The position numbers were made by a program, and so were the translations under genes. A stretch of 64,000 bases of DNA from a bacterium (GTDB taxonomy: Bacteria; Campylobacterota; Campylobacteria; Campylobacterales; Sulfurimonadaceae), in contig JAHJJX010000021.1 in NCBI GenBank assembly GCA_018822665.1, positions 62,001 through 126,000 of the forward strand. The letters are read 5' to 3'. Under the pieces are notes generated by a model. That model was not told where the DNA came from and made no database searches. It saw only the letters and a list, made by a program, of their open reading frames with translations. Shown here piece by piece: positions 142 to 33,514 of the stretch. Every line of letters begins with the position of its first letter. Positions within the stretch are counted from its first letter, which is position 1.

Positions 142-574
142 TTAAAACCTCATCAAGCAACCGGGGTGTTAGATTTTCTAGATACTTTCCATCAAGCGTG
201 CACATCGGAGCACCGCTGCATGCACCCATACACTCAACTTCAACTATCTCATAGGAATCACTGTAATTTTCTAACAGATGTTTTTTAATCTCTTGGCTTC
301 CACGCAGCTCACAAGACAAGGTTCTGCATACTTCAATAACTCTTTTTGTCGGTTTTTGAAGTCGAAACATCGTGTAAAATGTTGCCACGCTGTAAACATG
401 CATATACGGCATGTGGGAATGTTCTGAGATTACCTGCATTGCATCTTCGCTGATGTAGCCATCCTGCTTTTGAGCCATCCAAAGAAGTGGCAGAATCAGC
501 GCTTTTTTCTGCGGATAGCGTTTCATAAGTGAGGCGATTTTGAGGTTGTTTTCTTCGCTGAATGAAAAACTCAT
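131..574 (-). CDS. nuoE: NADH-quinone oxidoreductase subunit E (24 kDa-type)
   Basis: This 147-aa protein has the thioredoxin-like [2Fe-2S] fold signature of NuoE. The four cluster ligands are visible as Cys-x4-Cys (CRTLSC) and Cys-x3-Cys (CMGAC). In the canonical NADH module NuoE works with NuoF and NuoG to pass electrons from NADH. Its ATG overlaps the stop of nuoCD by four bases (ATGA), indicating translational coupling. The first complex I operon at 16-33 kb has no such protein, so this cluster encodes the conventional NADH-oxidising type. A near copy of the repeated motif (GGCATGTGG at 408-416) lies within it. Confidence 0.93.
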
Positions 575-2217
575 CTGTCCATCTCCCCTGCAATAATATT
601 AAGACTTCCAAGTGTCAAAATAGCATCTGCAAGCTGTGCTCCCTCAATCATCTCAGGATAGGCACTCATCGCAGTAAAGGACGGAGCTTTTACCTTTACC
701 TTGTAAGGAGTGCCGCTTCCATCACTCACAATGAAAAAACCAAGCTCCCCGTTTGTCGCTTCTATGGAGCCGTAATGCTCGCCCATCGGAACTTTTACAC
801 CCTCAAAAACGAGCTTAAACTGATTCATCGCACCCTCTATTGTTGTATAAACCGCCTCTTTCTTTGGCAGAGTAATGGATGCATCTTGAATATTTACTTC
901 ACCCTCAGGCAGATTTTGCATCACCTGTTCTATGATTTTTATGCTCTCATCAATCTCGCCAAAACGCACCATAACTCTGTCGTAAACATCGCCGACACTG
1001 CCCACTACGACATCAAACGCATACTTCTCATAACCATAATACGGTGCATCTTTTCTCATATCAAAAGTAACTCCACATGCCCGAAGATTTGGTCCCGTCA
1101 TTGCATAACTCAGAGCATCCTCCGCACTTATCACACCTACATTTTGAGTTCTCTCATGAAATATTCTATTGTGTTTTATGAGTGAGAGCGTTTCTTGTAC
1201 TCCATATTGAACTTTTTTAATGACCTCTTTTAAATCATCTTCAAAGCCTTCATACAAATCATTCGTCATCCCGCCGACGCGCATGTAGGAATTTGTGAGC
1301 CTTGCACCCGTGAGTTTTGAGAGCAAATCGTAAATATCTTCTCTTGGATTATACATATACCAGTAGTTTGTAAGTCCGCCCATATCGACCAAAACCGCCG
1401 CAAGACAGACAACATGGTCTTCAATGCGTGAGAGTTCAAGAAGCATTACGCGAATCGCCTGCGCGCGCTTGCTAATTTCTACTCCAAGCATATCCTCCAC
1501 TGTTTTTACAAAGGCAATATTATTGCTGATTGCAGAGCAATAGTTGAGTCTGTCTGTGTAGGGAACGATTTGATTGTAGGTGTGGTTTTCACAACTCTTC
1601 TCAAAGCCTCGGTGCAGATAACCGATTTCACTCACCGCACACTCTATTGTCTCCCCGTCAAGTGCAACATAGGTTCGTATAGTTCCGTGACTTGCGGGGT
1701 GCGATGGTCCAAGATTTAAGAACATTAAATCTTTATTGCACTCGCTAAAATTGCCGCTCTCGAGCTTACAGACAACATCTTTAGAGAGAAGTCTGTTGTT
1801 CATCTCATCCATTAAATCATCGGTTTCATAAAGAAACTGACCCTTTGTAATCGGGTAAGATTTTCTCAAAGGATGTCCTACAAACTCTTTATGATTGAGA
1901 ATACGTCTTAGATTCGGGTGATTCTTAAAAACAATGCCGTATTGGTCAAAAACTTCCCTCTCAAGCCAGTTTGCACCTTTAAAAAGATAGGAAACAGAGT
2001 CGCTCAGCAGAGTGTTTAAATATGTTTTAATAACAATATGCTCTTTAAAATTTTGATGACGGATAATATAGACTAAAGCGAACTCTTCCTCTTGGTTTTT
2101 AATATACTCACTGTAGTCGATTGCGGTAATGTCCAACAGATAAATAAAACCATCTGCATATTTGTTCTGTATAAATGCATGCAGCTTGGCATGTGGAACT
2201 GTTAGTATCTCAGACAT
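571..2217 (-). CDS. nuoCD: Fused NADH-quinone oxidoreductase subunits C/D
   Basis: A single polypeptide joins NuoC (about residues 1-130, with the signature [13 protein letters not shown] near residue 85) to NuoD (from about residue 165, starting at [10 protein letters not shown]). NuoD forms the quinone-site floor and NuoC the peripheral-arm connector. I chose the ATG at 2217, which overlaps the nuoB stop by eight bases, over an in-frame TTG two codons earlier. The CD fusion contrasts with the separate nuoC and nuoD genes at 30.6-32.6 kb, so the two operons are not recent duplicates. Similar fusions occur in Enterobacteria and other lineages. Confidence 0.93.
2188..2198 (+). repeat. DUS-like 11-mer GGCATGTGGAA, inside nuoCD
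   Basis: Exact copy of the over-represented 11-mer, read on the coding strand as Val-Pro-His-Ala near the NuoC N terminus. Confidence 0.7.
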
Positions 2218-2728
2218 TATCAAGCTTACTTTTAAAATCTTTGTGCCTGTCCGGATTGTATTTGTTTGTTCTCAAATCCTTTTGCAGACGCAGCAGTGCA
2301 TCCAACAAGGCTTCGGGTCTTGGAGGACAACCGCCGACATACAAATCAACGGGGATAATCTCATCAATTCCCTGCATCGTCGTATAGTTGTCATAAAACC
2401 CGCCGCTACAAGCACATGCTCCCATACTTACAACCCATTTGGGCTCACTCATCTGCTCATATATCTGTTTGAGAATTGGACCTTGTTTATACGTGATAGT
2501 TCCCGCAACAATGAGCAAATCTGCCTGACGCGGTGAAAAACGAACTACCTCCGCACCAAAACGGGAGATGTCATATTTACTAGCCGCTACACTCATAAAC
2601 TCTATCGCACAGCATGCCGTTCCAAAAATCATAGGCCAAAGAGAGGACTCTCTCGCCCAGCCTATCGCCTCATCGAGCTTCGTTGTAATGGCAATGTCTA
2701 AAGGCAGAGCAACATTATTCAGCTCCAT
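2210..2728 (-). CDS. nuoB: NADH-quinone oxidoreductase subunit B (second operon)
   Basis: This 172-aa subunit carries cluster N2, the last Fe-S centre before quinone. The ligand pattern is intact: the CC pair in [10 protein letters not shown], a Cys in GACACSGG and a Cys in GGCPPRPE. It overlaps nuoA by ten bases and nuoCD by eight. It is clearly diverged from the NuoB at 32634-33143 (for example CCAIEFMS against CCGIEMMA), consistent with two distinct complex I enzymes. Confidence 0.95.
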
Positions 2729-3081
2729 TTCAAGACACCTTTTTTATAGATGTAGATGAGTCCGGCCAACAAAAGTGTCATAAAAGCAAACATTTCAAAA
2801 AGTCCAAGAATACCGGTTTCTCTAAGTGTCACTGCCCATGGAAACATAAAAAGGATTTCAACATCAAAGATTACAAAAATGATAGCCACTAGATAATATT
2901 TGATATTAAAACGCTCAAAGCTGTCTTTATAGGTTTTTTTTATTCCGCTCTCATAGCTTTGATTTATTGCACCCGTGGGCTTTGATTTTTCACCGATATA
3001 TCGACTCAAGTGAAACAAAAAAGGTATCAAAACACTAAGAATAATTATGATTGTAAGCGGTAAATAAAAATTGTAGTTCAA
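2719..3081 (-). CDS. nuoA: NADH-quinone oxidoreductase subunit A (second operon)
   Basis: This 120-aa protein has three predicted membrane helices and the conserved acidic segment [11 protein letters not shown], typical of NuoA, which sits at the junction of membrane and peripheral arms. The start appears to be a UUG codon: no ATG or GTG is available upstream, and a strong GGAGG lies eight bases before it. It is the first gene of the operon that runs off the left edge. A candidate promoter lies at 3109-3114. Confidence 0.9.
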
Positions 3082-16111: not shown

Positions 16112-17620
16112 CTAGTATCCACTGTTATATACAAATGCCGTAATAAATTCAAGTAATGGATTTACAGCGATAAAAGCAAATATAGTTCCTACTGCGGCTA
16201 AACCGATAATAGTACGAAGAGATAAAGATGCATTGTTTGTGAACACATGCTCATCTGCACCTTTTACTGGGTCTAACATAAACATATAGACTATAAGTTT
16301 TAAATAATAATAACCTGCAATGGCAGAGTTTAAAGCCATAATAAGTGCAAGAACAGTATATCCGCCCGATACGGCAGATGCTATCATATAAAGCTTACCC
16401 CAAAAAAGTGCAAAAGGAGGAATTCCTGCCAAACTCAACATAAAAAGTGCCATTATACTAGCCGCTACAGGCGCTGTTCTTACCATACCGGCAAATTTAT
16501 TGTAGCTATGATCGGATGACTGATGTGCAGGTATATGTTTTTGACGAGAAATCCAAAGCATACTAAATGAACCAAGATTTGTAAATGTAAACAAGGCCCA
16601 ATATAAAAACAATGCGCTGTTTGACTGTGTTGTTCCAATTAAAATAGCTGCCATTACAAAACCGGCATGTGAAATTGAACTATAGGCAAGCATTCTTTTA
16701 ACATCCGTTTGAACCAATGCCCAAATATTTGCAGCCGTCATTGTTACAACCACAAAAATATAAAGTATAACTTCAAGCCATACAACACCGCTATGGATTA
16801 AAAACTCAAATATACGCATAGCAACAATAAATGCTGCTATTTTTGGAACAATCGACATAAATCCAGCCATTGAAGCACTAGCACCCTCATAAATATCCGG
16901 AGCCCATGTATGGAATGGTACGAGAGAGAGTTTAAATCCAAATGATGCCAACATAAAAGTAACACCGATAAGCACATAACCGATATCTGCATATTTATTC
17001 GCAGCCAACACGGAAGCTATTTGATTAATCTCAACTGAACCCGTAAGTGCATAAAAAACCATAGCCCCAAAGCTATAAAATCCAGCTGCCAATGCGCCCA
17101 TAGTAAAATATTTAACAGCCGCTTCAAATGATTTATCACGATTGTGCATCGCGATTAAAGTATATAAAGCCAAAGATGATGTTTCAAGTCCAACAAAAAC
17201 GAGAATTAAATTATCTGTTGCAACCATAAACTGGAAACCTGAAATCATAAATAAAAATAAAGCGAAAAATTCCGGATATGAAAACTCATGAAATCTTTTT
17301 GATGTTAATGCAAGGGGAATAAAAAGCATTGAAGCGCCGACTATGATAAGTTGAGACAAAATTGCTAACCCATCGATAAGCATTACATCAAATATTCCCA
17401 TAATAGTGCCATTTTGCGCAAATGCACCCGCAGACTCTAAAATAGCTCCAAAATCCATTACTAAAAATAAAAGGCTTAACATTACATATAAGGTTTTATC
17501 TAAACCACTTTTAAACAAATCAACAACTATTATCATTAACGCACCAATAATAGGAATCAACATTGGTGATAGAGTCATTAAATTTAATGACTCTAAAGAA
17601 ACATTTACCGGCTCTAACAT
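16112..17620 (-). CDS. nuoN: NADH-quinone oxidoreductase subunit N
   Basis: One of three antiporter-like proton-pumping subunits. The 502-aa protein has about 14 membrane helices, with the conserved helix-5 Glu in FVGLETSSLALYTL and the Lys-bearing segment RMLAYSSISHAGF. It follows nuoM with a 1-base overlap and closes the canonical nuo order. A one-mismatch copy of the repeat lies at 16674-16684. Confidence 0.96.
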   Translation of the reverse strand: MLEPVNVSLESLNLMTLSPMLIPIIGALMIIVVDLFKSGLDKTLYVMLSLLFLVMDFGAILESAGAFAQNGTIMGIFDVMLIDGLAILSQLIIVGASMLFIPLALTSKRFHEFSYPEFFALFLFMISGFQFMVATDNLILVFVGLETSSLALYTLIAMHNRDKSFEAAVKYFTMGALAAGFYSFGAMVFYALTGSVEINQIASVLAANKYADIGYVLIGVTFMLASFGFKLSLVPFHTWAPDIYEGASASMAGFMSIVPKIAAFIVAMRIFEFLIHSGVVWLEVILYIFVVVTMTAANIWALVQTDVKRMLAYSSISHAGFVMAAILIGTTQSNSALFLYWALFTFTNLGSFSMLWISRQKHIPAHQSSDHSYNKFAGMVRTAPVAASIMALFMLSLAGIPPFALFWGKLYMIASAVSGGYTVLALIMALNSAIAGYYYLKLIVYMFMLDPVKGADEHVFTNNASLSLRTIIGLAAVGTIFAFIAVNPLLEFITAFVYNSGY

Positions 17621-19173
17621 TAGTGTGCCCCCTGTGTAGAAGTTTTAGTTATCTCAATACCTTCTATAAGGTTAGGAATTCTTGACTTTGCTTCTTCAGT
17701 AATAGATTTATCATGCATTAACTGAACAATTGATTCAACACTGTTATTGATAGGCTCTAGAATTGGTTTAGGATATACGCCCAGCCAAATAGTAATTATC
17801 GACAATGGAATTAATGCTAAAAGTTCTCTTTTATTTACATCCGGAAGATTTCTATTTTTCTCGTTTGTCACTTTACCGAAAAACATTTTTTTGTATGCCG
17901 CTAGCATATAGATAGCGCCAACAATTATAGCTGCACCGGCTAAGAGGGTAAGTATGTGAGATTGTTTATAAAAACCGAGAAGACTTAAAAATTCTCCAAC
18001 AAAGTTTATTGTTAAGGGCATACCTACCGATGCCATAAGCATCAATCCAAAAATAGTGGCATATCTTGGCATTACAGATGCAAGGCCGCCAAATTCACTC
18101 ATCATCTTCGTATGACGTCTATCATAAATTACACCCACAAGCAAGAACAGTGCACCGGAAACTACACCATGTGCAATCATAAGGAAAATTGAACCGGTGA
18201 TACCTTCAACATTTAATGCAAATGTACCAAGGATAATTACCCCCATATGTGAAACTGAAGAGTAAGCAACAACCTGTTTAATATCTTCTTGAGCATAAGC
18301 AACCATAGCTGTATATATAATCATGATAATAGCTATGATTGCTATCGGGAACATGAAAAATACAGATGCATCCGGAAACATCGGCAAAGAAAAACGAATA
18401 AATGCATAAGTACCCATTTTAAGTAAAATAGCCGCAAGTATTACAGAACCGATAGTTGGAGCCTGCCCGTGAGCGTATGGCAACCATGTGTGAAACGGGA
18501 ACATTGGAACTTTAATAGCAAAACCGACAAAGAAAGCTCCAAATAACCAAAGTTGAAATGTCTCCGGCAAAATCAATCTGTACCAATCAAGAATTGCAAA
18601 ACTCCATACACCTGTCGCCTGATAGTAAAAATATGCCATAAACAACATACCAACAAGCATAACTAATGAACCGGTAAACGTATAAAGGAAAAATTTAATG
18701 GATGCATATATTCTTAAAGGTCCTCCCCATGCACCGATGATATAAAGCATCGGTACGAGTGACAACTCCCAAAAAACATAAAATACTATCGCATCAAGAG
18801 CAGCAAATACACCAACCATAGTCATCTGTAAAAACAGAAGCGTTATTATCATATTTTTCACATTTTTTGTTTCAGTTAAAGAAGCGATACCGATTAAAGT
18901 AAAAAATGAAGCTAATATAATAATAAAGAGCGATATTCCATCTACCCCTAAAATATAATTAATTCCAAATGCAGGTACTAATGGAAGTTGTTCCATAAAC
19001 TGCATGCCAGAAGCATTAGAATCAAAAGAGAACCACAACAATAAAGATAAAGCAAGTTCTATAAATGCTACGGATATACCATAAGCACGGGCACTGTCTT
19101 TGTGAATTACAAATCCAAACATTGCCGCCAAGGCCGGAAAGAAAATTAAAATCGATAAAATATTATCTAACAT
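17620..19173 (-). CDS. nuoM: NADH-quinone oxidoreductase subunit M
   Basis: Antiporter-like subunit of 517 aa with the family segments YVFWELSLVPMLYIIGAWGG (key Glu in helix 5), FHTWLPYAHGQAPT and KQVVAYSSVSHMG. It contributes one proton channel of the membrane arm. Spacing is three bases from nuoL. Confidence 0.97.
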   Translation of the reverse strand: MLDNILSILIFFPALAAMFGFVIHKDSARAYGISVAFIELALSLLLWFSFDSNASGMQFMEQLPLVPAFGINYILGVDGISLFIIILASFFTLIGIASLTETKNVKNMIITLLFLQMTMVGVFAALDAIVFYVFWELSLVPMLYIIGAWGGPLRIYASIKFFLYTFTGSLVMLVGMLFMAYFYYQATGVWSFAILDWYRLILPETFQLWLFGAFFVGFAIKVPMFPFHTWLPYAHGQAPTIGSVILAAILLKMGTYAFIRFSLPMFPDASVFFMFPIAIIAIIMIIYTAMVAYAQEDIKQVVAYSSVSHMGVIILGTFALNVEGITGSIFLMIAHGVVSGALFLLVGVIYDRRHTKMMSEFGGLASVMPRYATIFGLMLMASVGMPLTINFVGEFLSLLGFYKQSHILTLLAGAAIIVGAIYMLAAYKKMFFGKVTNEKNRNLPDVNKRELLALIPLSIITIWLGVYPKPILEPINNSVESIVQLMHDKSITEEAKSRIPNLIEGIEITKTSTQGAH

Positions 19174-21088: not shown

Positions 21089-21397
21089 CTATCCTCTCAT
21101 TGTTGACATTTTGTCAAGGTTAATATTTCCGTGGCGCTTATGCCAAACAATTAATAAACCAAGGCCTACGGCAACCTCTGACGCTGCTATCGCAATTACA
21201 AAAAATGCAAACAGCTGACCAGTTAAATCACCGTAGTAGTGTGAAATCGCAGCAAAAGCTATATTAACGGAGTTTAATAAAATCTCAGTTGCGAAAAATA
21301 ATAAAAGAAGATTCTTACGTCGCATCACGCCAAACAATCCAATTGCAAACAAAATAGTTGACAATACAAGATAATGAGTAAGTCCTATTTCTATCAT
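21089..21397 (-). CDS. nuoK: NADH-quinone oxidoreductase subunit K
   Basis: A 102-aa three-helix subunit (MrpC-like) with the two conserved membrane glutamates in FATEILLNSVN and AASEVAVGLG. These residues line the hydrophilic axis of the membrane arm. It overlaps nuoJ by four bases. Confidence 0.95.
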   Translation of the reverse strand: MIEIGLTHYLVLSTILFAIGLFGVMRRKNLLLLFFATEILLNSVNIAFAAISHYYGDLTGQLFAFFVIAIAASEVAVGLGLLIVWHKRHGNINLDKMSTMRG

Positions 21398-21960
21398 GAG
21401 CGTACCTTTTCATTTTTTTCAGCTTCAATCTCTTCATCACTCATAAGAGTAAGAGATAAATCCATTTTTTTACCAGCCAATACAATGCCCGAAATCATTG
21501 CAACAAGCAACATTACCGCTGCAACTTCAAAAGGAACCAAATACTTTGTAAAAAGAACCATACCAATTTCTTGAGTATTCCCAGCACCTGCAACCATTGG
21601 ATAAAGAGCGGTTATATTATTTGAAACCATTGGCACGGCAAAGATAACAACAATTAAAATTGCAGCTAAAATACTTAAACCCAAAATTATCGCCTTGTTT
21701 CCCTGCTTTTCTTTTACATCCCTCGTGGTATCAAAAAACATCATTCCGAATGCATAAAGGGCCATCACGGCGCCTGAGTAAACAACGATTTGAATCGCAC
21801 CTAAAAAGTCAGCACCTAGAATAAAGAAAAATGCCGATATAAAAATCATTCCCGCCGCTAATGCCGTTATGGCATATAACGCTTGCGATGTTGTTACTGT
21901 TATATAAAACATCGCTATCGTTAAAAAAGCAAACAAATAAAAAGCAATAGCTTCAAACAT
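21394..21960 (-). CDS. nuoJ: NADH-quinone oxidoreductase subunit J
   Basis: A 188-aa five-helix subunit with the conserved GAIQIVVYSGAVMALYAF segment, the pi-bulge helix of complex I. The C terminus is a short charged tail. It lies 11 bases after nuoI and overlaps nuoK. Confidence 0.95.
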   Translation of the reverse strand: MFEAIAFYLFAFLTIAMFYITVTTSQALYAITALAAGMIFISAFFFILGADFLGAIQIVVYSGAVMALYAFGMMFFDTTRDVKEKQGNKAIILGLSILAAILIVVIFAVPMVSNNITALYPMVAGAGNTQEIGMVLFTKYLVPFEVAAVMLLVAMISGIVLAGKKMDLSLTLMSDEEIEAEKNEKVRS

Positions 21961-22596: not shown

Positions 22597-23586
22597 TTAA
22601 AACATCATAACTAAGCCAGTGATAACTATGTTAATCACTGCTATCGGCATTAGTACTTTCCAGCATAACCACATCAATTGGTCTGGTCTTACATCTGGCC
22701 ACGCAGCTCTTGTCCATAAGAAAAAGAAAAAGAAAAATGACATCTTAGCAAGCAAACCTAACGCTCCAAGCAAACTACCGTCTCCATATCCACCTAAGAA
22801 AAGCAATGGAATAACAAATGAAATAAAGAACATATTTGCATATTCGCCAATAAAAAATAATCCCCATCTCATACCGGAGTATTCTGTACCGAAACCATCA
22901 ATAATCTCATGGTCATTTGCAATAAGGTGAAACGGCGTACGACCGGTTTCAGCAAATGCAGCTATCCAGAATAAAACAAAGGCAACAGGCTGAGACCAAA
23001 TTATCCAATCTCCAATTCCCCCCGCCTGATATTCATTAAAATCTATAAGAGATAATGAACCAACCATCATGATTGGGGCGAGAATGGATAAACCTGTTAC
23101 TACCTCATAAGAGATAAATACAGCAGCACCACGGGCAGCGGAAAGTAAAGAGAACTTATTTGCCGAAGCCATACCACCGAGAAGCGGTCCATACAAACCT
23201 ACTCCCATAATTCCAAGTATATATAAAATACCAATATTTATATCAGCAACAATTGGATGAACCGTATATCCAAAAAGTGTAAACTGTGGTAAAAAAGGTA
23301 TTGCTGCGGCTGCCATAAATGCGGTCGCTGCAGTAATAACAGGCGCAATTTTAAAAATACGACTAACAACATTTGTCGGAATAATATCCTCTTTTGTAAA
23401 TAGTTTTATACCATCTGCAGCAACTTGTAATAATCCGTAAGGTCCAACATACATCGGCCCTAAACGACGCTGCATAAATGCAAGAACTTTTCTTTCAAAA
23501 TAAGTTCCAATACCTGCTAAAGCAGAAAATATGAGTAAAATAACTACGACTTTTATAACCGTCTCAATTAAATATGCTGTATCCAT
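22597..23586 (-). CDS. nuoH: NADH-quinone oxidoreductase subunit H
   Basis: The 329-aa subunit links the membrane and peripheral arms and shapes the quinone tunnel. Family signatures are ERKVLAFMQRRLGPMYVGPYG, AETGRTPFHLIAND with the nearby Glu/Asp-rich loop, and TRAAWPDVRPDQLMWLCWK in the C-terminal part. The spacing to nuoG is three bases. Confidence 0.97.
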   Translation of the reverse strand: MDTAYLIETVIKVVVILLIFSALAGIGTYFERKVLAFMQRRLGPMYVGPYGLLQVAADGIKLFTKEDIIPTNVVSRIFKIAPVITAATAFMAAAAIPFLPQFTLFGYTVHPIVADINIGILYILGIMGVGLYGPLLGGMASANKFSLLSAARGAAVFISYEVVTGLSILAPIMMVGSLSLIDFNEYQAGGIGDWIIWSQPVAFVLFWIAAFAETGRTPFHLIANDHEIIDGFGTEYSGMRWGLFFIGEYANMFFISFVIPLLFLGGYGDGSLLGALGLLAKMSFFFFFFLWTRAAWPDVRPDQLMWLCWKVLMPIAVINIVITGLVMMF

Positions 23587-23589
23587 ATG

Positions 23590-26085
23590 TTACACCTTTT
23601 GAATCGAAGCTGTTGCAAAGCGGTATGAGCTAAACAGAGCCTCTGAGTTTATTTTAGAATCAAATGTCGGTATGCACGCCACATCGCCAGTAATTTTATT
23701 ATCACTTATAATATGAAGCACTAACTCGCCATTATCATTTTTAATGCGTACACTATCCCCTGCATTTAGTTCAGATTTACTTAGATATTCTTCACTCATA
23801 TAAACACCGCCCTGCGTCTTAAGAAGAGTAGTTTTATTCGTAAATGGAGTAAATTGTCTTACAGGATTTACAAGATATATTAGCGTTCCTTCAAGTTTAT
23901 CATCACTTATTGCTTCTACGCCCTCATCACCACTGAGCTCAATACTTCTATTTTCCAATAAGTACCCTCTTCTTTCAGTACCATCATTCTCATAATGATT
24001 TGGAAGATTATCAAATTGTTCAGATTTAAAGCCTGCATTTTTCGGTAACAAAGCTGTATATTCAATTACATGTTCTGCGCTCAAACCTAGTGCATTTGCA
24101 ATATCATTTAACTCATAGCCAAAATATGCCAATGCCGCATTTGTTGGATTAACACGCTTGTTAATACTCGTTAAAGTTCCCTCTTGCTGATTCATAGCCG
24201 GCATATCCAAGTCGCATTCGCTTGCATCCCCAAGTGCTGACAACGTAAAATCACCTTTAGTATTGTAGCCTATTGTATAAGCGCCTACATTATCATCAAG
24301 TTCACATATTAATGCAACACCTAATGAATTTGTCAATGGAGGAATCATCGTAACTTCAAATGCGCTGTACTTTTCAATAAGGGCAACTAAACGCGCTAAA
24401 TTTCTTGAATTTGGATGCGTATATAAATCCGGTCCTACTATAAGAGCGAATACATCTTTTTTCTTTAAGTTTTTATCTAACTCTTCTTCAAATTTTGAAT
24501 CCGCATTTACTAATGATAAAAGACGATTTTCATCAACCTTTACCTCTTTAGATACTTTTTTAGAAACCATAGAAGATTTTTCCTCTTCTACTTCCTCATC
24601 TTCACCGGTTTCTTCATTCTTCTTCATAACTTTAACAATTTCAGTCACTTTTTCTTTTACAGTTTCTTCAACAGTTATAGTTTTCTTTGAATGAAAAGAT
24701 GCTAAATACTCAAGAATTGCTGTAGGTAATTTTGATTTATCTGCAAATAAATCAAGTATCAGGTACAAAACTGCCTCTTCTTGCAAAGGCGCATGGTTTA
24801 CGCTCATAATACTTTTGCCCATTCCCTCTATGATAGGATCCCCAACAGGGTGAAAATAAAGTCCTGCACCTTTGTTTATCGTCATGGAGTTGTTGAGGGC
24901 ATATCTTGCATTGGGATTATCACTTTTAAGTGCCCCGCCAACAGAAATAACAAAATTAGAATTGTGAACTACTTTTAAGTCGCTTCCATAAAGAGATGTT
25001 CCGCTAATTTCACTATAATCTTTCAAGAATGTTTGAAAAGATTTTGCTTCCTTATTTACAAGTTTGTATCCATTTTTCTCTTTTAAGGACTGCAGTAAAT
25101 ATGCCTCTTCATTCGTGATAGTTGAAGTAAATTTAATAGTATCCGCTTTTTTGAAAGCTTCTAAGGCGCTAGCGAAAGCTTTTTCATCTTTGCCTGCTAC
25201 TCTATTTTCATAGTCAAATCCGTAACGTCCTGCGCCGCATAAAGAAACGTAGTTCCATTCATTCATAACACGGTAAATTTTATTTTCAGGATTTTCAATA
25301 CTAGTGTGCTTAACATCATAAGAGATTTGGCATCCTGCTGCGCAATGTCCGCAGGTAGCAGGTATTTGTTTTAATTCCCAGGAGTTTGATTTGTACATAA
25401 AATCTGTGTCTACTAAAGCACCGACAGGACACACTGCCGCACATTCGCCACAAGAGGTACAATCAAGCATCTCTTCGCCGGAGGTTAAGCCAATTACTGA
25501 TTTATTAAGCTTATTCCACATGCTGTATGCATCTTTTGGCATTGTATCTTTATACTCCGCACTAAGCGCCTCTGAACCACGGGCTACTGTTTTAAGCGAG
25601 TTATCACCAATCATATCTTTACATGCTGTAACACATCTCTCACAAACAATACATAAACCCGGATCGTAATGAATATGTCCCCAATCTTTAGAGCTTCTAT
25701 CAACATCTTTGATAGAATAATTCTGTGAATCTACACCAATTTCTAAAGTATAGTTTTGCAGTTCGCATTCTCCAGATTGGTCACACACGCCGCATTGGAG
25801 CGGGTGGTTAACATCATAAACTTCCATTATTGCGCGTCTTTCAGCTTCAATAGTTTGCGTTGATGTTGTTATACTCATACCGTCTTTAGCTTTGGCATTA
25901 CACGCATACACTTGTTTACCGTCTGCCTCAACAAGACAGATACGGCAAGCAAGTGTAGGACTGCATCTTGTTAAATAACATATAGCTGGAATAAAAATAT
26001 CATTTGCACGAGCGGCATTTAAAATATACTCGCCCTCTTGCGTCTGTACTTCTCTTCCGTCAATGTTTATAGTAATTTTACTCAT
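23590..26085 (-). CDS. nuoG: NADH-quinone oxidoreductase subunit G, copy adjacent to nuoH
   Basis: An 831-aa iron-sulfur protein with the N-terminal 2Fe-2S ferredoxin domain (CYLTRCSPTLACRIC), the His-Cys3 motif HPLQCGVCDQSGEC, two 4Fe-4S sites (CIVCERCVTAC and CTSCGECAAVCP) and the CGHCAAGC...SLCGAGRYG site that starts the molybdopterin-oxidoreductase-like domain. A charged Glu/Lys-rich insert (about residues 478-530) is missing from the 750-aa neighbour. Two NuoG in tandem is unusual. It overlaps the upstream NuoG-like gene by eight bases. Confidence 0.92.
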   Translation of the reverse strand: MSKITINIDGREVQTQEGEYILNAARANDIFIPAICYLTRCSPTLACRICLVEADGKQVYACNAKAKDGMSITTSTQTIEAERRAIMEVYDVNHPLQCGVCDQSGECELQNYTLEIGVDSQNYSIKDVDRSSKDWGHIHYDPGLCIVCERCVTACKDMIGDNSLKTVARGSEALSAEYKDTMPKDAYSMWNKLNKSVIGLTSGEEMLDCTSCGECAAVCPVGALVDTDFMYKSNSWELKQIPATCGHCAAGCQISYDVKHTSIENPENKIYRVMNEWNYVSLCGAGRYGFDYENRVAGKDEKAFASALEAFKKADTIKFTSTITNEEAYLLQSLKEKNGYKLVNKEAKSFQTFLKDYSEISGTSLYGSDLKVVHNSNFVISVGGALKSDNPNARYALNNSMTINKGAGLYFHPVGDPIIEGMGKSIMSVNHAPLQEEAVLYLILDLFADKSKLPTAILEYLASFHSKKTITVEETVKEKVTEIVKVMKKNEETGEDEEVEEEKSSMVSKKVSKEVKVDENRLLSLVNADSKFEEELDKNLKKKDVFALIVGPDLYTHPNSRNLARLVALIEKYSAFEVTMIPPLTNSLGVALICELDDNVGAYTIGYNTKGDFTLSALGDASECDLDMPAMNQQEGTLTSINKRVNPTNAALAYFGYELNDIANALGLSAEHVIEYTALLPKNAGFKSEQFDNLPNHYENDGTERRGYLLENRSIELSGDEGVEAISDDKLEGTLIYLVNPVRQFTPFTNKTTLLKTQGGVYMSEEYLSKSELNAGDSVRIKNDNGELVLHIISDNKITGDVACIPTFDSKINSEALFSSYRFATASIQKV
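25514..25524 (-). repeat. One-mismatch DUS-like 11-mer, inside nuoG
   Basis: Reads aGCATGTGGAA on the minus strand (first G changed). Listed as a near match. Confidence 0.4.
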
Positions 26086-28330
26086 GTACTACTCTCATTA
26101 TTTTGGATTTTTCAAATCTATATCTACTGGCATCTACAACATCATCAAAAGTAGGATTTAATGCTATTGTCCCTTTTAGATTATTATCTAGTTTAAAATC
26201 TCTTGTAATCATCTTAGAGCCAAATCTTATTTCAACTCTGTCCCCATCAGAAATTTTTGCACACGCTGCAAACTGAGCTGAACCCCTCAGCGCAGTATCT
26301 TTTTCAAGCTGTTTAGCTATATTTGTATAGGCATTAAACTGTAAAACAGGATTTGAATTATATATTACAGTGCCATTAAACTCCGGTAAGTCCTCTATGG
26401 ATTCCAGTTCACCGCTTATGCTGCATTCAACTTCATCAAGAAGATAACCTCTCACGTCATCTCCAAGAGGAGAAAGATAATTCTCTAAAGAATCAAAGTT
26501 AAGATTCTTAAAGCCTGATTTAGGATTGAGCATACTTGTATAATCAATAGTATTTTTGCTATTGATTCCACATGCCGAAGCTAAATCATTTAAAGTATAT
26601 CCATCAAAAGAGACAGACACATTTGTTGGCAGCACTCTATTGTCTATACTTACAAAAGTCCCCTCTTGTTGATTGAGTGCGGGAACTGCAAGATTTGCAA
26701 ATTTTAATGAAGAGATTAAAAAATTACCCCTTGCATTGTATCCGACTACATCAATAATATCTTCATCTTTATCTAATTCTGCAATAAGAGATACACCAAG
26801 TGTATTTACTTCATTTGGCACAACAACCAAAGAGAATGTAGTGTATTTTTCAATCAATGCAGCTAGTTTGGCAATATTTAAGGCTCTATCATGAGCAATG
26901 AGATCATTTCCTATAATTAAAATGCGGTTCTTTGCTCTTGAAAATGATTTCATCATCTGTAAAATTTCTTCATGTCCAATGTTGCTTTCGGCTTCAAGAT
27001 AACCTAAATCAAGTTCATTAAAAAATGCTCTCTCTGCATCTGATAAATCTGCTTCTTGAAGTATTGCGTTTGCCAAAAGTGCTAAAACACCCTCTTCCGT
27101 TCCGACTTCATATTTCATAAATTGAGTTACGGTATTTTGCAGCAATGCGTCTTCAAGAGGGTGTGCATATACTATTTTGGCTCCATTATGCTTTCTGGCC
27201 GTTGTAATCGCATATCTCACACCAGGATTATCCGTAGCTATTCTTGTGCCGATAACAATAATCGCATCTGCTTGTTTAATTGCGTCTAGAGAACCGCTAT
27301 GGTGCTTTTTACCACTAACACTGCTATAAGAATTCATAAACTCTTGGAACTTTCTAGCATCTTCATTAAATAACTGAATTCCAAGTTTTTCTTTTAAAAG
27401 TTGCAATATATGTGCTTCTTCATTTGTTATCATTGAGGAAAAACGGATAGCTTTTGCATTTTTTAAAGCATCAACAGCCTTAACGAAAGCGTTTTCATCT
27501 TTAAGTGCTCTGTTTTCAAAATCAAAACCAAATCGCCCTGCACCACACAAAGATGTAAATTCAAAATTATTTTTTACTCTGAAAATAGATTCAAACCCAT
27601 TATCAATTCCTGAATATTTTGTTTCATATTCCAAAGAGCACCCTGCCGAACAGTGTGCGCACGTAGCCGGTACACGACGAAGTTCCCAAGCATTTGCACT
27701 ATACTGAAAGTTTGAACTCACAAGCGCGCCAACCGGACAAACTGCGATACATTCACCACAAAAAGTACAATCAAGCGTATCGGCATTTTTAGGAATTATG
27801 GTGGAACTGTATCCGCCAAACTTGACATCAATCGCATCATCACCGATGACTTCATTACAAACGTGAACACATTTTTCACATAAAATACACAAAGACGGAT
27901 CATAATTAATCAGTCCCCAATGTTCAATTTTACGAGCTTGGTCGCGCGCTGTAAAGTTTTGCTGAGCAACACCAAACTCTAAAGTTTTATTTTGAAGGTC
28001 ACACTCTCCAGATTTGTCACACACGCCACATTCTAAAGGATGGTTCACATCATAAAGCTTCATAATATTGATTCGTTCATTTTCAAGTTCTTTTGAATTT
28101 GTCGTAATCTCTATTCCCTCAATAGGAGGAGTGTTACAACTCAAAACGAATCCATTTACATCTTTGGCTTCAACCACACACATACGACACGATGCACACG
28201 GAGTAGTTTTAGATATGTAACACATTGTTGGTATATAGATGCCATTTTTTCGGGCTACACTTAGAATAGTTTCGCCTTTTTTAGCTTCAACTTGGATACC
28301 GTCAATTTTAAAATTAATCAAATCATTCAT
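26078..28330 (-). CDS. nuoG: NADH-quinone oxidoreductase subunit G, second tandem copy
   Basis: A 750-aa NuoG homologue with the same metal sites as its neighbour: CYISKTTPCASCRMC, HPLECGVCDKSGEC, CILCEKCVHVC, CTFCGECIAVCP and CAHCSAGC...SLCGAGRFG. It follows the NuoF/GltD-like flavoprotein by 13 bases. Conserved architecture but clear divergence suggests an old duplication in which both copies stay functional. One copy might be the structural complex I subunit and the other part of an input module for another donor. An exact 11-mer repeat lies at 26566-26576. Confidence 0.9.
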   Translation of the reverse strand: MNDLINFKIDGIQVEAKKGETILSVARKNGIYIPTMCYISKTTPCASCRMCVVEAKDVNGFVLSCNTPPIEGIEITTNSKELENERINIMKLYDVNHPLECGVCDKSGECDLQNKTLEFGVAQQNFTARDQARKIEHWGLINYDPSLCILCEKCVHVCNEVIGDDAIDVKFGGYSSTIIPKNADTLDCTFCGECIAVCPVGALVSSNFQYSANAWELRRVPATCAHCSAGCSLEYETKYSGIDNGFESIFRVKNNFEFTSLCGAGRFGFDFENRALKDENAFVKAVDALKNAKAIRFSSMITNEEAHILQLLKEKLGIQLFNEDARKFQEFMNSYSSVSGKKHHSGSLDAIKQADAIIVIGTRIATDNPGVRYAITTARKHNGAKIVYAHPLEDALLQNTVTQFMKYEVGTEEGVLALLANAILQEADLSDAERAFFNELDLGYLEAESNIGHEEILQMMKSFSRAKNRILIIGNDLIAHDRALNIAKLAALIEKYTTFSLVVVPNEVNTLGVSLIAELDKDEDIIDVVGYNARGNFLISSLKFANLAVPALNQQEGTFVSIDNRVLPTNVSVSFDGYTLNDLASACGINSKNTIDYTSMLNPKSGFKNLNFDSLENYLSPLGDDVRGYLLDEVECSISGELESIEDLPEFNGTVIYNSNPVLQFNAYTNIAKQLEKDTALRGSAQFAACAKISDGDRVEIRFGSKMITRDFKLDNNLKGTIALNPTFDDVVDASRYRFEKSKIMRVVHE
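26566..26576 (-). repeat. DUS-like 11-mer, inside the second nuoG
   Basis: Exact copy in the coding orientation, read as Ala-Cys-Gly, a different codon frame from the Pro-His-Ala sites. Confidence 0.7.
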
Positions 28331-28343
28331 ATATCCAACTCCC

Positions 28344-30344
28344 TTACGTAGCTATCATAGCAATATAGTAACATCGCATACAACGATCAGCTTCACTCAA
28401 TGCTTGCTCTTGCGTAAAGCCCAAGTTAACTTCTTTGTTATTAAATTTTCTAATATCAACACCCAGTATCTCACTATGCTCACGAGGAAGCCCAGGCAGC
28501 CAACCGCTTACCTTTTCTTTTTTGTTATACACTTTTAATTTGCGAAGATGATCTTCCATAATCTCATCATCACTTAAAGTAATTTCACCTGTTTGCACAT
28601 ATCTTGCCATTACGGAAGCCCCGCGTTTTGCTTGGCCAACTGCATTTACAATAGTCATTGGACCATATTCACAATCTCCTGAAGCAAAAATTCCTTTGCG
28701 CGAAGTCATATAATCTTTACCGTTTGTTTTTATAGTTCCCCAAGAAGTCATCTCAATTTCCCATTCTTTTGGGAGTAATTTAAGGTCAGCACTTTGAGAA
28801 ACCGCAGGAACAAGGAAATCTGTTTCTATCTCATAAGACGCACCATCAATTTTCACAAGCTGTGCACGCCCGCCGTCTGGGTCGGGAACTAATTCAAACT
28901 TGTCAATAAGAAGAGATTTTAAGACATCATCTTCATCATTCATCACGTTAACTGCCGAGTGGAATAAAAATTCCACACCCTCTTCAACAGCCTCATGATA
29001 CTCTTCATAGGTTGTATTGTTAATTATAGTTCTCTCATCTCTACGATAAACCATATAAACTTTTTTAGCATTGGCTCGAATTGCACATCTTACAACGTCC
29101 ATTGAAGTAAATCCGCCGCCGACACAAACAACTGTTTTTCCGGTTAAATCTACCGCTTCACCAATGCCGTATTTGTCCCAAAGATTAATTTGGTCAAGCA
29201 TCTCGATGGCCGACCAATAACCTTTGATTTCAAATCTTTCATTATCGCAGTAAACTTTTTTAGAGATACGGGTTCCCGTAGCAACCATAGTTGCATCATA
29301 TTCCGTCTCAAATCTTCTCATATCGTCGGCAGTTATTTTTGTGTTTACTATGAAATTAACCCCCATGTCTCTAACACATTCAATATCTTGATTATATTTA
29401 TCAATCGGCATACGGTATTCAGGCACGCCTACAGCGACTTCTCCGCCTAAAACAGGCAGTTCTTCATACACGTCTACTTCTATTCCCTCAGCCGCTAAAT
29501 AATAAGCTGTCGTAAGTCCGGCGGGGCCTGCGCCGATTACTGCGACTTTTTTATCAATAGATGCTTTTTTCTCCATTGGATGAAAAAAGTCGAATCCATG
29601 ATCTGTTTCCCAATCTGCACCCAAACGTTTAAGAGCCATTATAGAAATCGGCTCATCAAGATTGGTTCTTCTGCATGCATCTTCACAAGGATGTGGACAA
29701 ACACGTCCGCATACATGAGCAAGAGGCATAGTTTGACGCGTCGCTTCAAGTGAATCATCAAATCTTAAATCTCTAACACCCTCAATATATCCTGGAATGT
29801 CGACATGCGCTGGACAAGCATCAGTACAAGGCGCAGTTATCTTGGCGATATATCCTACACTTTCATTGTAATGCTTTGACGGTTTTTGATTGTTGATACA
29901 ATCAAGAAATACATCTTCAAAGTGTGTCATCAAATCTAAAATAGGATTTGGAACTGTTTTACCTATCTCACATTTAGAAGTAATTTGCATACTCTTGCCA
30001 ATCTCTTTTAAGTGATCCAAATCAGAAACACTACCTTCACCACGAGCAATCTTATCTAATTGATCATATAGAATTCTTCCACCCCAACGACCAGGTGCAC
30101 ATCTTCCACATGCCTCAGAATACTCTTGGTATTGTGCAGCATATTCCATAGCTAAACGGATTACATCTACATCTGCATTAAATAACGATACACCGTCCCA
30201 GCCTATAAAAGCTTTAGATTCACGGTGAGAGTCATACTGTGCCGGTAGGTTATAAGCTGATTCTTCCCACTCTTCTTCAGGCTTATTGACATTATTTATC
30301 AGCTCACCATTCCAAGTAGAAAAATAGACTTTACTCACAATCAA
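28344..30344 (-). CDS. NuoF C-terminal-like Fe-S domain fused to GltD-like FAD/NAD(P)H oxidoreductase
   Basis: The 666-aa protein occupies the nuoF position. Residues 70-150 resemble the NuoF N3-cluster domain, but the Cys-x2-Cys-x2-Cys motif reads CGRCAPG (C79, C82, then Gly85), with a further Cys at 125. Next comes a glutamate-synthase small-subunit-like part: Cys-rich CTDACPAHVDIPGY and CGRVCPHPCEDAC, an FAD fingerprint (VIGAGPAGLTTAYYL), an NAD(P)-binding GGGFTSMDVV and a C-terminal GIFASGDC. It probably feeds complex I from NAD(P)H or ferredoxin; that is inference. Start is TTG at 30344 or GTG two codons on. Confidence 0.85.
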   Translation of the reverse strand: MIVSKVYFSTWNGELINNVNKPEEEWEESAYNLPAQYDSHRESKAFIGWDGVSLFNADVDVIRLAMEYAAQYQEYSEACGRCAPGRWGGRILYDQLDKIARGEGSVSDLDHLKEIGKSMQITSKCEIGKTVPNPILDLMTHFEDVFLDCINNQKPSKHYNESVGYIAKITAPCTDACPAHVDIPGYIEGVRDLRFDDSLEATRQTMPLAHVCGRVCPHPCEDACRRTNLDEPISIMALKRLGADWETDHGFDFFHPMEKKASIDKKVAVIGAGPAGLTTAYYLAAEGIEVDVYEELPVLGGEVAVGVPEYRMPIDKYNQDIECVRDMGVNFIVNTKITADDMRRFETEYDATMVATGTRISKKVYCDNERFEIKGYWSAIEMLDQINLWDKYGIGEAVDLTGKTVVCVGGGFTSMDVVRCAIRANAKKVYMVYRRDERTIINNTTYEEYHEAVEEGVEFLFHSAVNVMNDEDDVLKSLLIDKFELVPDPDGGRAQLVKIDGASYEIETDFLVPAVSQSADLKLLPKEWEIEMTSWGTIKTNGKDYMTSRKGIFASGDCEYGPMTIVNAVGQAKRGASVMARYVQTGEITLSDDEIMEDHLRKLKVYNKKEKVSGWLPGLPREHSEILGVDIRKFNNKEVNLGFTQEQALSEADRCMRCYYIAMIAT
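30104..30114 (-). repeat. DUS-like 11-mer, inside the NuoF/GltD-like gene
   Basis: Exact copy in the coding orientation (Ala-Cys-Gly), overlapping the first Cys of the Fe-S motif. Confidence 0.7.
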
Positions 30345-30580: not shown

Positions 30581-31819
30581 TTATCTATCAACTTCACCGA
30601 AAACGATGTTAGTAGTACCAATAATCGAAACAACATCCGGAATGTAGTGTCCAGGCAGAAGGTCAGTTAAAATGCCTGTATGCCAAAAAGATGGGGCACG
30701 AAGCTTTAATCTATAAGGGTATGGGCCGCCTTGAGAGTTTATAAAGAACCCAAGCTCACCTTTTGGTGACTCAGTTGCTACATATACTTCACCGACTGGA
30801 GGTCGCATACCCTGAGTCACGAGAACAAAGTGTTGCATTAACGAATAATTCTGAGTCATAATATCAATCTTTGGAGCAGAGATATATTTCGGGGCATGCG
30901 CCATCAATTCAGTCTGTCCATTCTTTACACATTCATTATACATATCTATAGTTTGATAAAGAATTTTTGCTGTCTCTCTCATCTCTTCCATATAAATACG
31001 GTAACGAGCGAAATTATCACCTTTGTCAGAATAAGGAACATTAAACTCAACTTCGTCATAAAGTTCATACGGCTCTTCTTTACGAATATCCCAAGCTATG
31101 CCAGAAGCACGAAGCATTGGTCCCGTACAACCCCATGAAATCGCCATTTCACTAGAAATAGTACCAACTTCTTCCATTCTCATTAGCCAGATACGGTTTG
31201 TATCAAGAAGATCCTCATAATCTTTAATATTTTGAGGTAATTTATCCAGGAAATCTTTAAGTTGAGCGATAAAACCATCTTGTATATCAAGAGGAACACC
31301 GCCGATACGGATAGCCGCATGCGTAAGCCTTGCTCCACAGTACCCTTCTATGATATCCATCAAATATTCTCTTTCGCGGAATGCAAATAAGAAAACAGTC
31401 ATAGCTCCAATATCTAGAGCTGTTGTTGCCAACCAAAAAAGGTGAGACATCAAACGGTTAATTTCTAAAAGCATCATGCGAATAACTTTTGCACGACGAG
31501 GAACTTCTACGTCAATCAACTTTTCAACTGCCAAGGCAAAGCCGTAGTTGTTTGAAGATGAAGCGATATAATCCATACGATCTGTTGTCGGCATGAATTC
31601 ATTATAAATCATGTTTTCAGCCATCTTCTCCATACCGCGGTGAAGATACCCAATATCTGGATGCGCCTTTACAATCATCTCTTGCTGCAAATGCAACATT
31701 AAACGTAACTGCCCGTGAGCAGAAGGGTGCTGAGGACCGAAGTTCAAGATAAGCTCATTATCAGCTCTATCAAAAGTGATATTTTCAAAAAACGGTGTTA
31801 ATCTATTTTTTACTTGCAT
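30581..31819 (-). CDS. nuoD: NADH-quinone oxidoreductase subunit D
   Basis: The 412-aa 49-kDa-type subunit, homologous to the large subunit of NiFe hydrogenases. Signatures include [15 protein letters not shown] (His residues near the quinone site), [15 protein letters not shown] and the C-terminal NIVFGEVDR. It stands alone, unlike the CD fusion at 571-2217, and lies eight bases after nuoC. Confidence 0.97.
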
Positions 31820-32634: not shown

Positions 32635-33143
32635 TACATCAACCTTTTTGGCTTTTGCGCATTACCGGCTTTATTAGCACGAATTTTTTGCTGCAGCAAC
32701 ATAACCCCATACTGAAGCGTCTCTGGACGAGGTGCACACCCTGGTAAATACAGGTCAACAGGAATAATTCTGTCCACTCCCTGAACCGTTGCGTAAGTGT
32801 TAAACATCCCACCTGTATTTGCACACGAACCCATAGAAATAACCCATCTCGGTTCAGTCATTTGATCATAAAGCCTTTTAATAAACTCAGCATGCTTTTT
32901 CGTTAATGTCCCAGCGACTATCATAACATCTGCCTGACGAGGGGAAGCTCTAAATATTGTGCCAAAACGGTCAAAGTCATATCTTGAAGCACCCGATGCC
33001 ATCATTTCAATACCACAACAGGCAAGACCGTAAGTCAGTGCCCAAAGCGAATTTGATCTACCCCAATTTACAACTTTGTCTATACTTGTAAGTGCTACCG
33101 GCAAGCCGGCATTTTGCGTATAATTTATTTTATGTTGTGCCAT
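32634..33143 (-). CDS. nuoB: NADH-quinone oxidoreductase subunit B
   Basis: The 169-aa N2-cluster subunit with all ligands: [16 protein letters not shown] and GCAPRPE. It overlaps nuoA by 19 bases. The C-terminal [11 protein letters not shown] tail is basic. Confidence 0.96.
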
Positions 33144-33514
33144 TCAAGCGCTCCTTTTTTCCATGCGTATACGAATCCAATAGTTAACAACAAGATAAAC
33201 ATTAGCATCTCAGCAAAACCGAACCAGCCAAGTGCTTTAAAGTCGACCGCCCACGGAAACATAAAAACTATTTCAACATCAAATAGTAAAAATAGTAATG
33301 CAAATAAATAGAATTGCGGAGAAACTCTATTTGGTTGCTTTGTTATCTCCGGTCCACATTCATAAACAGAAAGTCTAATTTTTTCACTGTCTTTTGCAGC
33401 CAGTGCACGACTCGCCAGCCGAGCAATAACTGTTGTTGCTATAAATGCACCGAATGTTATAACAAAAAGTACAAATACCCCAAAATACGGATTTGCGGTG
33501 TTGATGTGCTCCAT
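33125..33514 (-). CDS. nuoA: NADH-quinone oxidoreductase subunit A
   Basis: First gene of the 14-gene operon, 129 aa, three membrane helices and the conserved loop [13 protein letters not shown]. The ATG follows AGGTAGGA. The upstream 322-bp region (33515-33836) holds no gene; it contains a weak TATATT near 33552-33557 and the inverted repeat at 33705-33736. Confidence 0.95.

What the first reader, a model, noticed from the sequence alone, without database searches (positions are those of the whole stretch)
23590..28330. Tandem NuoG paralogues
Both copies keep all Fe-S ligands but differ by about 80 residues, including a charged insert in the larger one. Complex I normally needs one NuoG.
Basis: partly seen in the sequence, partly recalled or inferred. 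Interest (0 to 1): 0.5.

Follow-up and report, generated by a model that had tools for sequence, protein, structure and literature searches.

The report
Complex I with two tandem NuoGs
A Sulfurimonas-type bacterium encodes a respiratory complex I with two ancient, different NuoG electron-wire subunits and a fused NADP(H)-type flavoprotein, and the complex I subunit of Helicobacter relatives now labelled 'NuoF' appears to be a cut-down relic of one of those NuoGs.

Summary
Two intact NuoG genes lie head to tail (NuoG1, 750 aa, 26078-28330; NuoG2, 831 aa, 23590-26085; 38% identical), both with all Fe-S ligands, inside a complete epsilon-type complex I cluster of a Sulfurimonadaceae bacterium. 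The duplication is old: trees put the NuoG1s in one clade and the NuoG2s, with the single NuoGs of other lineages, in another. In 43 of 45 fetched loci with a NuoF-N3/StnC-like fusion protein (NuoY) the order is nuoX-nuoY-nuoG1-nuoG2; the other two are cut by contig ends. In 32 of 32 fetched epsilon-type loci without the fusion there is one Fe-S NuoG, and 30 hold in the slot a 231-350 aa protein that profiles identify as the C-terminal half of NuoG1, all Fe-S domains gone. One lies next to a gene identical to H. pylori HP1264, where HP1265 is labelled 'NuoF'. The reduced form appears more than once in the trees. Best reading: NuoG1 and NuoY form an added NADP(H) module wired in series to NuoG2, like StnC split into two chains. 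Series wiring, NADPH specificity and direction are inferred. Novelty: new variant of complex I, plus a new origin for the 'NuoF/NuoY' subunit.

The parts
33125..33514 (-). nuoA (eNuo cluster)
   Evidence: Pfam PF00507
32634..33143 (-). nuoB
   Evidence: Pfam PF01058
31828..32634 (-). nuoC (separate from D, unlike the canonical cluster of the same genome)
   Evidence: Pfam PF00329; fused CD of the other cluster
30581..31819 (-). nuoD
   Evidence: Pfam PF00346
30351..30572 (-). nuoX, 73 aa, homologue of the FMN-binding protein HP1264 (PDB 2LXR)
   Evidence: Pfam PF16514 'putative chain E'; phmmer to 2lxr_A E 4e-20; FMN binding of HP1264 from PMC6269979 passages
28344..30344 (-). nuoY fusion, 666 aa by the longest frame (TTG start; the relatives' consensus start is the in-frame GTG two codons on, 30338): NuoF N3 domain + GltD/StnC-like FAD-NADP(H) domain
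   Evidence: Pfam PF10589, PF14691, PF07992
29907..30119 (-). NuoF-type N3 domain of NuoY (aa 76-146); Cys79, Cys82, Cys125 kept, position of the third canonical Cys is Gly85 in 45 of 45
28590..29837 (-). GltD/NfnB/StnC-like domain of NuoY (aa 170-585)
28371..28382 (-). C-terminal CxxC of NuoY (Cys655, Cys658), counterpart of the N-terminal CxxC of NfnL (circular permutation)
   Evidence: NuoY 631-658 aligns to 15-42 of 4ylf_B and 628-658 to 17-45 of 5jca_L, weakly (12.0 and 10.5 bits); invariant 45 of 45
26078..28330 (-). nuoG1, 750 aa
26078..27178 (-). NuoG1 C-terminal region (about aa 385-750), within which the pieces kept in the remnants lie (some remnants begin near position 340)
23590..26085 (-). 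nuoG2, 831 aa, in one clade with the single NuoG of loci without the fusion
24535..24693 (-). charged insert of NuoG2 (aa 465-517)
25507..25575 (-). second NuoG2-only insert (aa 171-193)
22597..23586 (-). nuoH
   Evidence: Pfam PF00146
21972..22586 (-). nuoI
   Evidence: 4Fe-4S Pfam domains and gene order
21394..21960 (-). nuoJ
   Evidence: PF00499, NF005167 over cut-off
21089..21397 (-). nuoK
   Evidence: PF00420
19177..21084 (-). nuoL
   Evidence: NF005141 over cut-off
17620..19173 (-). nuoM
   Evidence: NF004505 over cut-off
16112..17620 (-). nuoN
   Evidence: NF004444 over cut-off

Best explanation
This is the epsilon-type complex I (eNuo) of a Sulfurimonadaceae bacterium in its full form. 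NuoG1 and NuoG2 are two ancient paralogues with different jobs in one complex. NuoG2 is the proximal NuoG that feeds NuoI. NuoG1 together with NuoY forms an added NADP(H) module. NuoY carries FAD, a nicotinamide site and two [4Fe-4S] sites of the StnC/NfnB kind, plus the N3 domain of NuoF. The module resembles StnC (GltD + NuoG in one chain) split into two chains. Electrons would run NADP(H) - FAD - NuoY clusters - NuoG1 clusters - NuoG2 clusters - NuoI/NuoB - menaquinone, reversibly. NuoX (FMN) is a plausible second port for flavodoxin or ferredoxin. In many autotrophs it may run backwards, driven by proton motive force, to make NADPH. Several lineages deleted NuoY and the Fe-S half of NuoG1 and kept the NuoG1 C-terminal domain as the subunit now called NuoY/'NuoF'. 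Shown: gene content, ligand residues, the two paralogue clades, co-occurrence of the fusion with full NuoG1, identity of the remnant, more than one change of state. Inferred: cofactor binding, one complex, series wiring, NADPH rather than NADH, direction, loss rather than gain.
For: Tree of 77 NuoGs: NuoG1 one clade (27 rows, SH-aLRT 84), NuoG2 plus all 18 single NuoGs the other (44 rows, 95*). Pairing: nuoX-nuoY-nuoG1-nuoG2 in this order in 43 of 45 fetched fusion loci, the other two cut by contig ends; 32 of 32 fetched eNuo loci without the fusion have one Fe-S NuoG. Of the 125 fusion-negative genomes with PF10588, 116 have a single match (hand count), so no tandem. Remnants: hhalign to the NuoG1 profile 99.9-100% (E 4e-34 to 3e-57), to NuoG2 86.6-99.3%, to canonical NuoF 0.1%; 3 of 5 also meet NCBI's NuoG model weakly and none meets a NuoF family. 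They branch on the NuoG1 side, in two places. No Cys is among 21 positions shared by at least 24 of 30. Survival of the NuoG1 C-terminal domain beside NuoG2 argues that both belong to one assembly. NuoY: YRR-E at 433-437 invariant in 45 of 45, D436 in 44; Lys239 in 45 of 45 aligns with StnC Lys170, ligand of StnC's proximal cluster (PMC10482914 passages). Best-scoring solved relatives are subunits of NfnABC, StnABC and NfnI. In StnC the GltD FAD feeds a NuoG domain with one [2Fe-2S] and four [4Fe-4S], the set that NuoG1's ligands predict. NuoX matches FMN-binding HP1264.
Against: No expression, proteomic or structural datum for this form was found (one proteome search; PDB searches). The C. 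jejuni blue-native study seen (PMC7717971 passages) found NuoG, NuoC and NuoD together but not the remnant. The N3 site of NuoY has only three of four cysteines (Gly85 in 45 of 45). NuoG1 clade support is 84, below the 95 mark, on a long outgroup branch, and all trees were quick ones with long-branch warnings. NuoY's AlphaFold model is poor (pLDDT 61). The ATP-citrate lyase association is imperfect and not corrected for kinship: of 200 genomes, 37 of 46 fusion-positive have PF16114 and 9 of 154 fusion-negative do (6 of the 9 without any PF10588 match) (hand counts). One fusion genome (G167) has the contig length I recall for Wolinella succinogenes, no rTCA autotroph. NADPH over NADH rests on motif resemblance only.
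Confidence: 0.6

Rival explanations
1. NuoY and NuoG1 form a separate soluble NADPH dehydrogenase or transhydrogenase (SfrAB- or Stn-like) that is only co-transcribed with complex I.
For: GltD-like plus NuoG-like pairs exist in soluble enzymes (PMC7483475 passages); the best structural matches of NuoY are soluble transhydrogenases.
Against: NuoY begins with the N3 domain of NuoF; the genes sit between nuoX and nuoG2 in every uncut fusion locus fetched (43); loci without NuoY mostly keep the Fe-S-free C-terminal part of NuoG1 in the same slot (30 of 32), which makes little sense for a free enzyme.
Confidence: 0.2
2. Two interchangeable isoforms: each complex I takes either NuoG1 or NuoG2, by growth condition.
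For: Both keep all ligands in the window and look constrained.
Against: In the fetched loci only NuoG1 is ever reduced or missing, together with NuoY, and its C-terminal domain outlives its Fe-S half; the two genes overlap by 8 bases.
Confidence: 0.1
3. The NuoY FAD is an electron-bifurcating site, so the complex couples NADP(H), ferredoxin and menaquinone by flavin-based bifurcation.
For: Arg311 (45 of 45) aligns with the Arg of NfnB linked to bifurcation (PMC7483475 passages); best structural matches are bifurcating complexes.
Against: Lys239 stands where the aligned NfnL chains have Glu and aligns with StnC Lys170; PMC10482914 reports StnC's FAD as non-bifurcating (passages). StnC shares the Arg too. 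No FMN-type NuoF domain (PF01512) was found in NuoY and no NuoE domain in NuoX.
Confidence: 0.07
4. Recent, lineage-specific duplication raising NuoG dose.
For: Tandem, same orientation.
Against: 38% identity; NuoG1 is found in eight family codes of the tree as one clade.
Confidence: 0.02

Closest known systems
Epsilonproteobacterial complex I (eNuo; nuoEF replaced by nuoXY), as in Campylobacter and Sulfurospirillum
   Same: Same gene order with NuoX and separate NuoC and NuoD; NuoG2 groups with its NuoG.
   Different: Here the second slot is a 666-aa NuoF-N3/GltD fusion followed by a full second NuoG, whereas the single-NuoG loci examined mostly have a short protein that our profiles identify as a NuoG1 remnant.
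StnABC transhydrogenase, subunit StnC (GltD inserted in a NuoG); also NfnABC
   Same: GltD-like FAD/NADP(H) domain with C-terminal CxxC and Lys at the proximal cluster position, next to a NuoG-like wire.
   Different: Two chains instead of one, an added NuoF N3 domain, no FMN/NuoF-NuoE core found, and placement in a complex I operon.
Nuo-Bfu (complex I with a BfuABC input module, PMC9304861, passages)
   Same: A complex I in which the NADH module is swapped for another input module.
   Different: Nuo-Bfu has a BfuBC core; no such genes were found in this cluster.
Canonical NADH complex I (second cluster of the same genome)
   Same: NuoG family, Fe-S domain order.
   Different: One NuoG (450 aa), NuoE and NuoF present, fused NuoCD.

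Membership tests
NuoG (epsilon type, NCBIfam NF006305/PRK08493) | score over the curated cut-off (591 bits) | tested here: met
   NuoG2 1171.8, NuoG1 907.7 bits
NuoG (general equivalog TIGR01973) | score over the curated cut-off (470 bits) | tested here: not met
   191 and 242 bits; so they are epsilon-type, not standard, NuoGs
NuoG | [2Fe-2S], N5 (His+3 Cys), N4, N7 ligands | tested here: met
   both window copies complete; conservation
eNuo complex I | nuoX (HP1264 type) and no NuoE/NuoF with FMN domain in the cluster | tested here: met
eNuo complex I | flavodoxin or ferredoxin as electron donor | not testable with these tools
   stated for Campylobacter and others (PMC4178425, PMC6682613 passages)
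StnC/NfnB GltD-type subunit | FAD and NAD(P) Rossmann motifs, Cys set for two [4Fe-4S] incl. permuted CxxC | tested here: met
   residues present and invariant; actual cofactor binding not tested
StnC/NfnB GltD-type subunit | Lys (StnC) rather than Glu (bifurcating NfnB) at the proximal cluster position | tested here: met
   Lys239 in 45 of 45; position read from the alignments; roles from PMC10482914 passages
Stn/Bfu bifurcating complex | FMN-binding NuoF-like BfuB with PF01512 and NuoE-like BfuC | tested here: not met
   NuoY has only the C-terminal NuoF domain PF10589; NuoX is PF16514, HP1264 type
NuoF | N3 site with four cysteines and FMN domain | tested here: not met
   three Cys, Gly85; no PF01512

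The most novel reading that the evidence does not exclude
A complex I with two NuoG subunits wired in series and two electron ports: NADP(H) at the outer tip through NuoY-NuoG1, and ferredoxin or flavodoxin midway through NuoX-NuoG2. This would let autotrophs use menaquinol and proton motive force to reduce both NADP+ and ferredoxin in one machine. The flavodoxin complex I of Helicobacter and Campylobacter would be this machine with its outer half cut off.
Probability: 0.3. Interest if true: 0.82.

Novelty: new variant of a known kind. Interest (0 to 1): 0.62.

Why it matters
It offers an origin for the odd eNuo subunit that stands in NuoF's place: not a NuoF at all, but the C-terminal relic of a second NuoG. 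Since no cysteine is conserved in that relic, it is unlikely to carry electrons from flavodoxin itself, which makes the open question of how flavodoxin docks on this complex directly testable (NuoX FMN becomes the main suspect). It also points to an NADP(H)-linked complex I as a candidate source of NADPH in sulfur-oxidising autotrophs.

Tried and rejected
Idea that the N7 cluster of NuoG2 is the port for NuoG1 and decays when NuoG1 is lost: raw counts looked good (N7 kept in 39 of 42 against 15 of 32), but N7 is lost only in families f3, f10, f7 and f9, which include tandem loci (two changes on the tree), and independent pairs gave no signal (3 pairs). Rejected.

Idea that the fusion marks reductive-TCA autotrophs only: 9 of 46 fusion genomes lack PF16114 and 9 of 154 fusion-negative genomes have it. 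Kept only as a loose association.

Idea that NuoY is bifurcating because of Arg311: weakened by Lys239.

Structure prediction: NuoG1 pLDDT 70, better in its C-terminal half (best matches formate dehydrogenases and related enzymes and complex I NuoG, Z about 21-26). NuoY pLDDT 61. No ligand geometry or complex could be read from these.

Literature: ten listings (78 was on Stn only) and passages of fifteen papers showed nothing on tandem NuoG in eNuo or on a NuoG origin of HP1265/Cj1574c. Five of the fifteen (PMC4584964, PMC6037941, PMC2147049, PMC10045233, PMC4584990) had nothing used here.

Full report
WHAT IS THERE. The window's nearest named loci are Sulfurimonas and Sulfuricurvum (Sulfurimonadaceae). 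A 15-gene complex I cluster runs on the - strand from nuoA (33514) to nuoN (16112). Between nuoD and nuoH lie nuoX (73 aa), nuoY (666 aa), nuoG1 (750 aa) and nuoG2 (831 aa). The two NuoGs are 38% identical over their whole length and both exceed the cut-off of the epsilon-type NuoG model. Each has the ligands for one [2Fe-2S] and four [4Fe-4S] clusters. A separate canonical complex I cluster, with NuoE, NuoF and a 450-aa NuoG, lies to the left.

THE NEIGHBOUR. NuoY is not a NuoF. It has only the C-terminal N3 domain of NuoF (PF10589), followed by the Fer4_20 and Pyr_redox_2 domains of GltD-type flavoproteins. Its best-scoring solved relatives are subunits of NfnABC, StnABC and NfnI. A stretch like the one that begins NfnL, with its CxxC, is found at NuoY's C-terminus (aa 631-658), as in StnC and NfnABC. 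Three N3 cysteines are invariant but the fourth position is Gly85 in 45 of 45. Lys239, invariant in 45 of 45, aligns with StnC Lys170, the ligand of StnC's proximal cluster; StnC's FAD is reported as non-bifurcating (PMC10482914, passages).

DISTRIBUTION. Over 200 genomes of the phylum (own included), PF10588 is found in 171 and the fusion in 46 (hand count, best E 2e-175 or lower; one, G199, cut by a contig end). A wider sample gave the NuoY C-terminal tail at E 1e-45 or better in 126 of 397 (hand count). I fetched all 45 other fusion loci and 35 loci from the 125 PF10588-positive genomes without it; 3 of the 35 were canonical clusters (L137, L156, L157) and were set aside. In the 45, the order nuoX-nuoY-nuoG1-nuoG2 holds in 43; L113 and L126 are cut by contig ends. 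NuoG1 is complete in 44 and NuoG2 in 42 (split into two frames in L121, cut in L126, off the contig in L113). In the 32 remaining loci there is one Fe-S NuoG, of the NuoG2 type. Of the 80 named loci, nuoY is followed by nuoG1 in 75 and nuoG1 by nuoG2 in 80 (pieces cut by contig ends included).

THE REMNANT. In 30 of the 32 single-NuoG loci the slot between nuoX and nuoG2 holds a 231-350 aa protein (29, one more); L140 and L141 have nothing there. All 29 score best with the NuoG1 profile against NuoG2 and canonical NuoG profiles, and the thirtieth better with NuoG1 than NuoG2; they match only within about positions 340-525 and 630-750. Profile-profile comparison by family group gives NuoG1 at 99.9-100% (E 4e-34, 3e-57, 8e-46), NuoG2 at 86.6-99.3%, canonical NuoF 0.1%, canonical NuoG at most 1.9% and NuoY at most 0.3%. 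Of five remnants scanned, none matches a NuoF family and three match NCBI's epsilon NuoG model below its cut-off. Twenty-one positions are shared by at least 24 of 30 remnants and none is a Cys. L142's NuoX is identical to HP1264 (PDB 2LXR, 76 of 76), so its 339-aa remnant occupies the place expected for HP1265, a gene labelled NuoF in PMC3561388 (passages). That Cj1574c is the Campylobacter equivalent rests on PMC4178425 (passages) and gene order and was not checked by sequence.

HISTORY. In a tree of 77 NuoGs, NuoG1 forms one clade (84) and NuoG2 with the 18 single NuoGs another (95*), outside the canonical ones (100*). In a tree of C-terminal regions (59 rows, long branches flagged) the remnants fall on the NuoG1 side (99*), those of f2 with f2 NuoG1s (97*), those of f3 and f10 together (96*). 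On a tree of six other Nuo proteins the fusion/remnant state needs 5 changes, of which starred branches force 4. So the duplication predates the sampled families, and the reduced form arose more than once. The counts cannot by themselves tell gain from loss; loss is inferred from the single NuoG1 clade.

MECHANISM. Shown: the parts, the ligand residues, the pairing of the fusion with full NuoG1, the identity of the remnant. Inferred: NuoY-NuoG1 is an NADP(H) module docked on NuoG2. The chain NADP(H)-FAD-[4Fe-4S]2-NuoG1-NuoG2-NuoI-NuoB-menaquinone follows the StnC precedent, where a GltD FAD feeds a NuoG domain. That the C-terminal domain of NuoG1 survives after its electron wire is gone is the best argument that it is a structural partner of NuoG2; that it can be lost entirely (L140, L141) shows it is not always needed. 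NuoX, a homologue of FMN-binding HP1264, may be the flavodoxin/ferredoxin port. Reverse operation in autotrophs fits the overlap with ATP-citrate lyase (37 of 46 against 9 of 154) but is uncorrected for kinship and has exceptions.

WHAT IS KNOWN. Papers state that eNuo replaces nuoEF by other genes (nuoXY) and uses flavodoxin or ferredoxin (PMC6682613, PMC4585668, PMC4178425; passages). Other complex I variants with swapped input modules are known (Nuo-Bfu, PMC9304861; passages). Nautilia lacks nuoE, F, G and K (PMC2628731; passages); family f5 here, with ACL but no PF10588 in the six genomes concerned, may be that group (inference). The listings and passages seen held nothing on the tandem NuoG or on a NuoG origin of the NuoF-like subunit (searches in Tried and rejected), but key subscription papers are not held. 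Against the model: a C. jejuni blue-native study saw NuoG, C and D together without the remnant (PMC7717971, passages).

VERDICT. A real, conserved variant of complex I that I did not find described in the open papers searched; new variant of a known kind.

Noticed in passing
window 131-3081 and G000:C12:50000-66000 (L170): A second, canonical complex I cluster (fused NuoCD, NuoE, NuoF, 450-aa NuoG) lies about 13 kb from the end of the epsilon-type one; of 9 genomes of the genus in the 200-genome sample only 2 have three PF10588 matches.
   Followed up: partly
window 29907-30119 (NuoY aa 79-85): The position of the third canonical N3 cysteine is Gly in 45 of 45 NuoY proteins, while the other three Cys are invariant; what completes the site is unknown.
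   Followed up: partly
L121 (G167): NuoG2 is split into two frames (309 and 537 aa) in a genome whose 2,110,355-base contig matches Wolinella succinogenes as I recall it; sequencing error or true frameshift not resolved.
   Followed up: no
L140, L141: In these two f2/g18 loci the NuoG1 remnant is gone altogether and nuoX overlaps nuoG2.
   Followed up: partly
NuoG2 N7 ligands, L114, L116, L118, L129-L136, L153-L155, L158-L163: All four N7 cysteines are replaced in families f3, f10, f7 and f9, in both tandem and single types; two changes on the tree.
   Followed up: yes
L035: NuoY (149 + 499 aa) and NuoG1 (102 + 631 aa) are each split in this draft genome; probably assembly errors.
   Followed up: no
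G283, G286, G294, G212 (family f2, g42): The open frame holding the NuoY tail is 895-966 aa, longer than in most others listed, perhaps a further fusion.
   Followed up: no
NuoG1 aa about 439-455: A motif like LDxGYxxAESNxGEEE is among the best conserved pieces of NuoG1 and of the remnants and is not seen in the NuoG2 rows shown; a candidate interface.
   Followed up: partly
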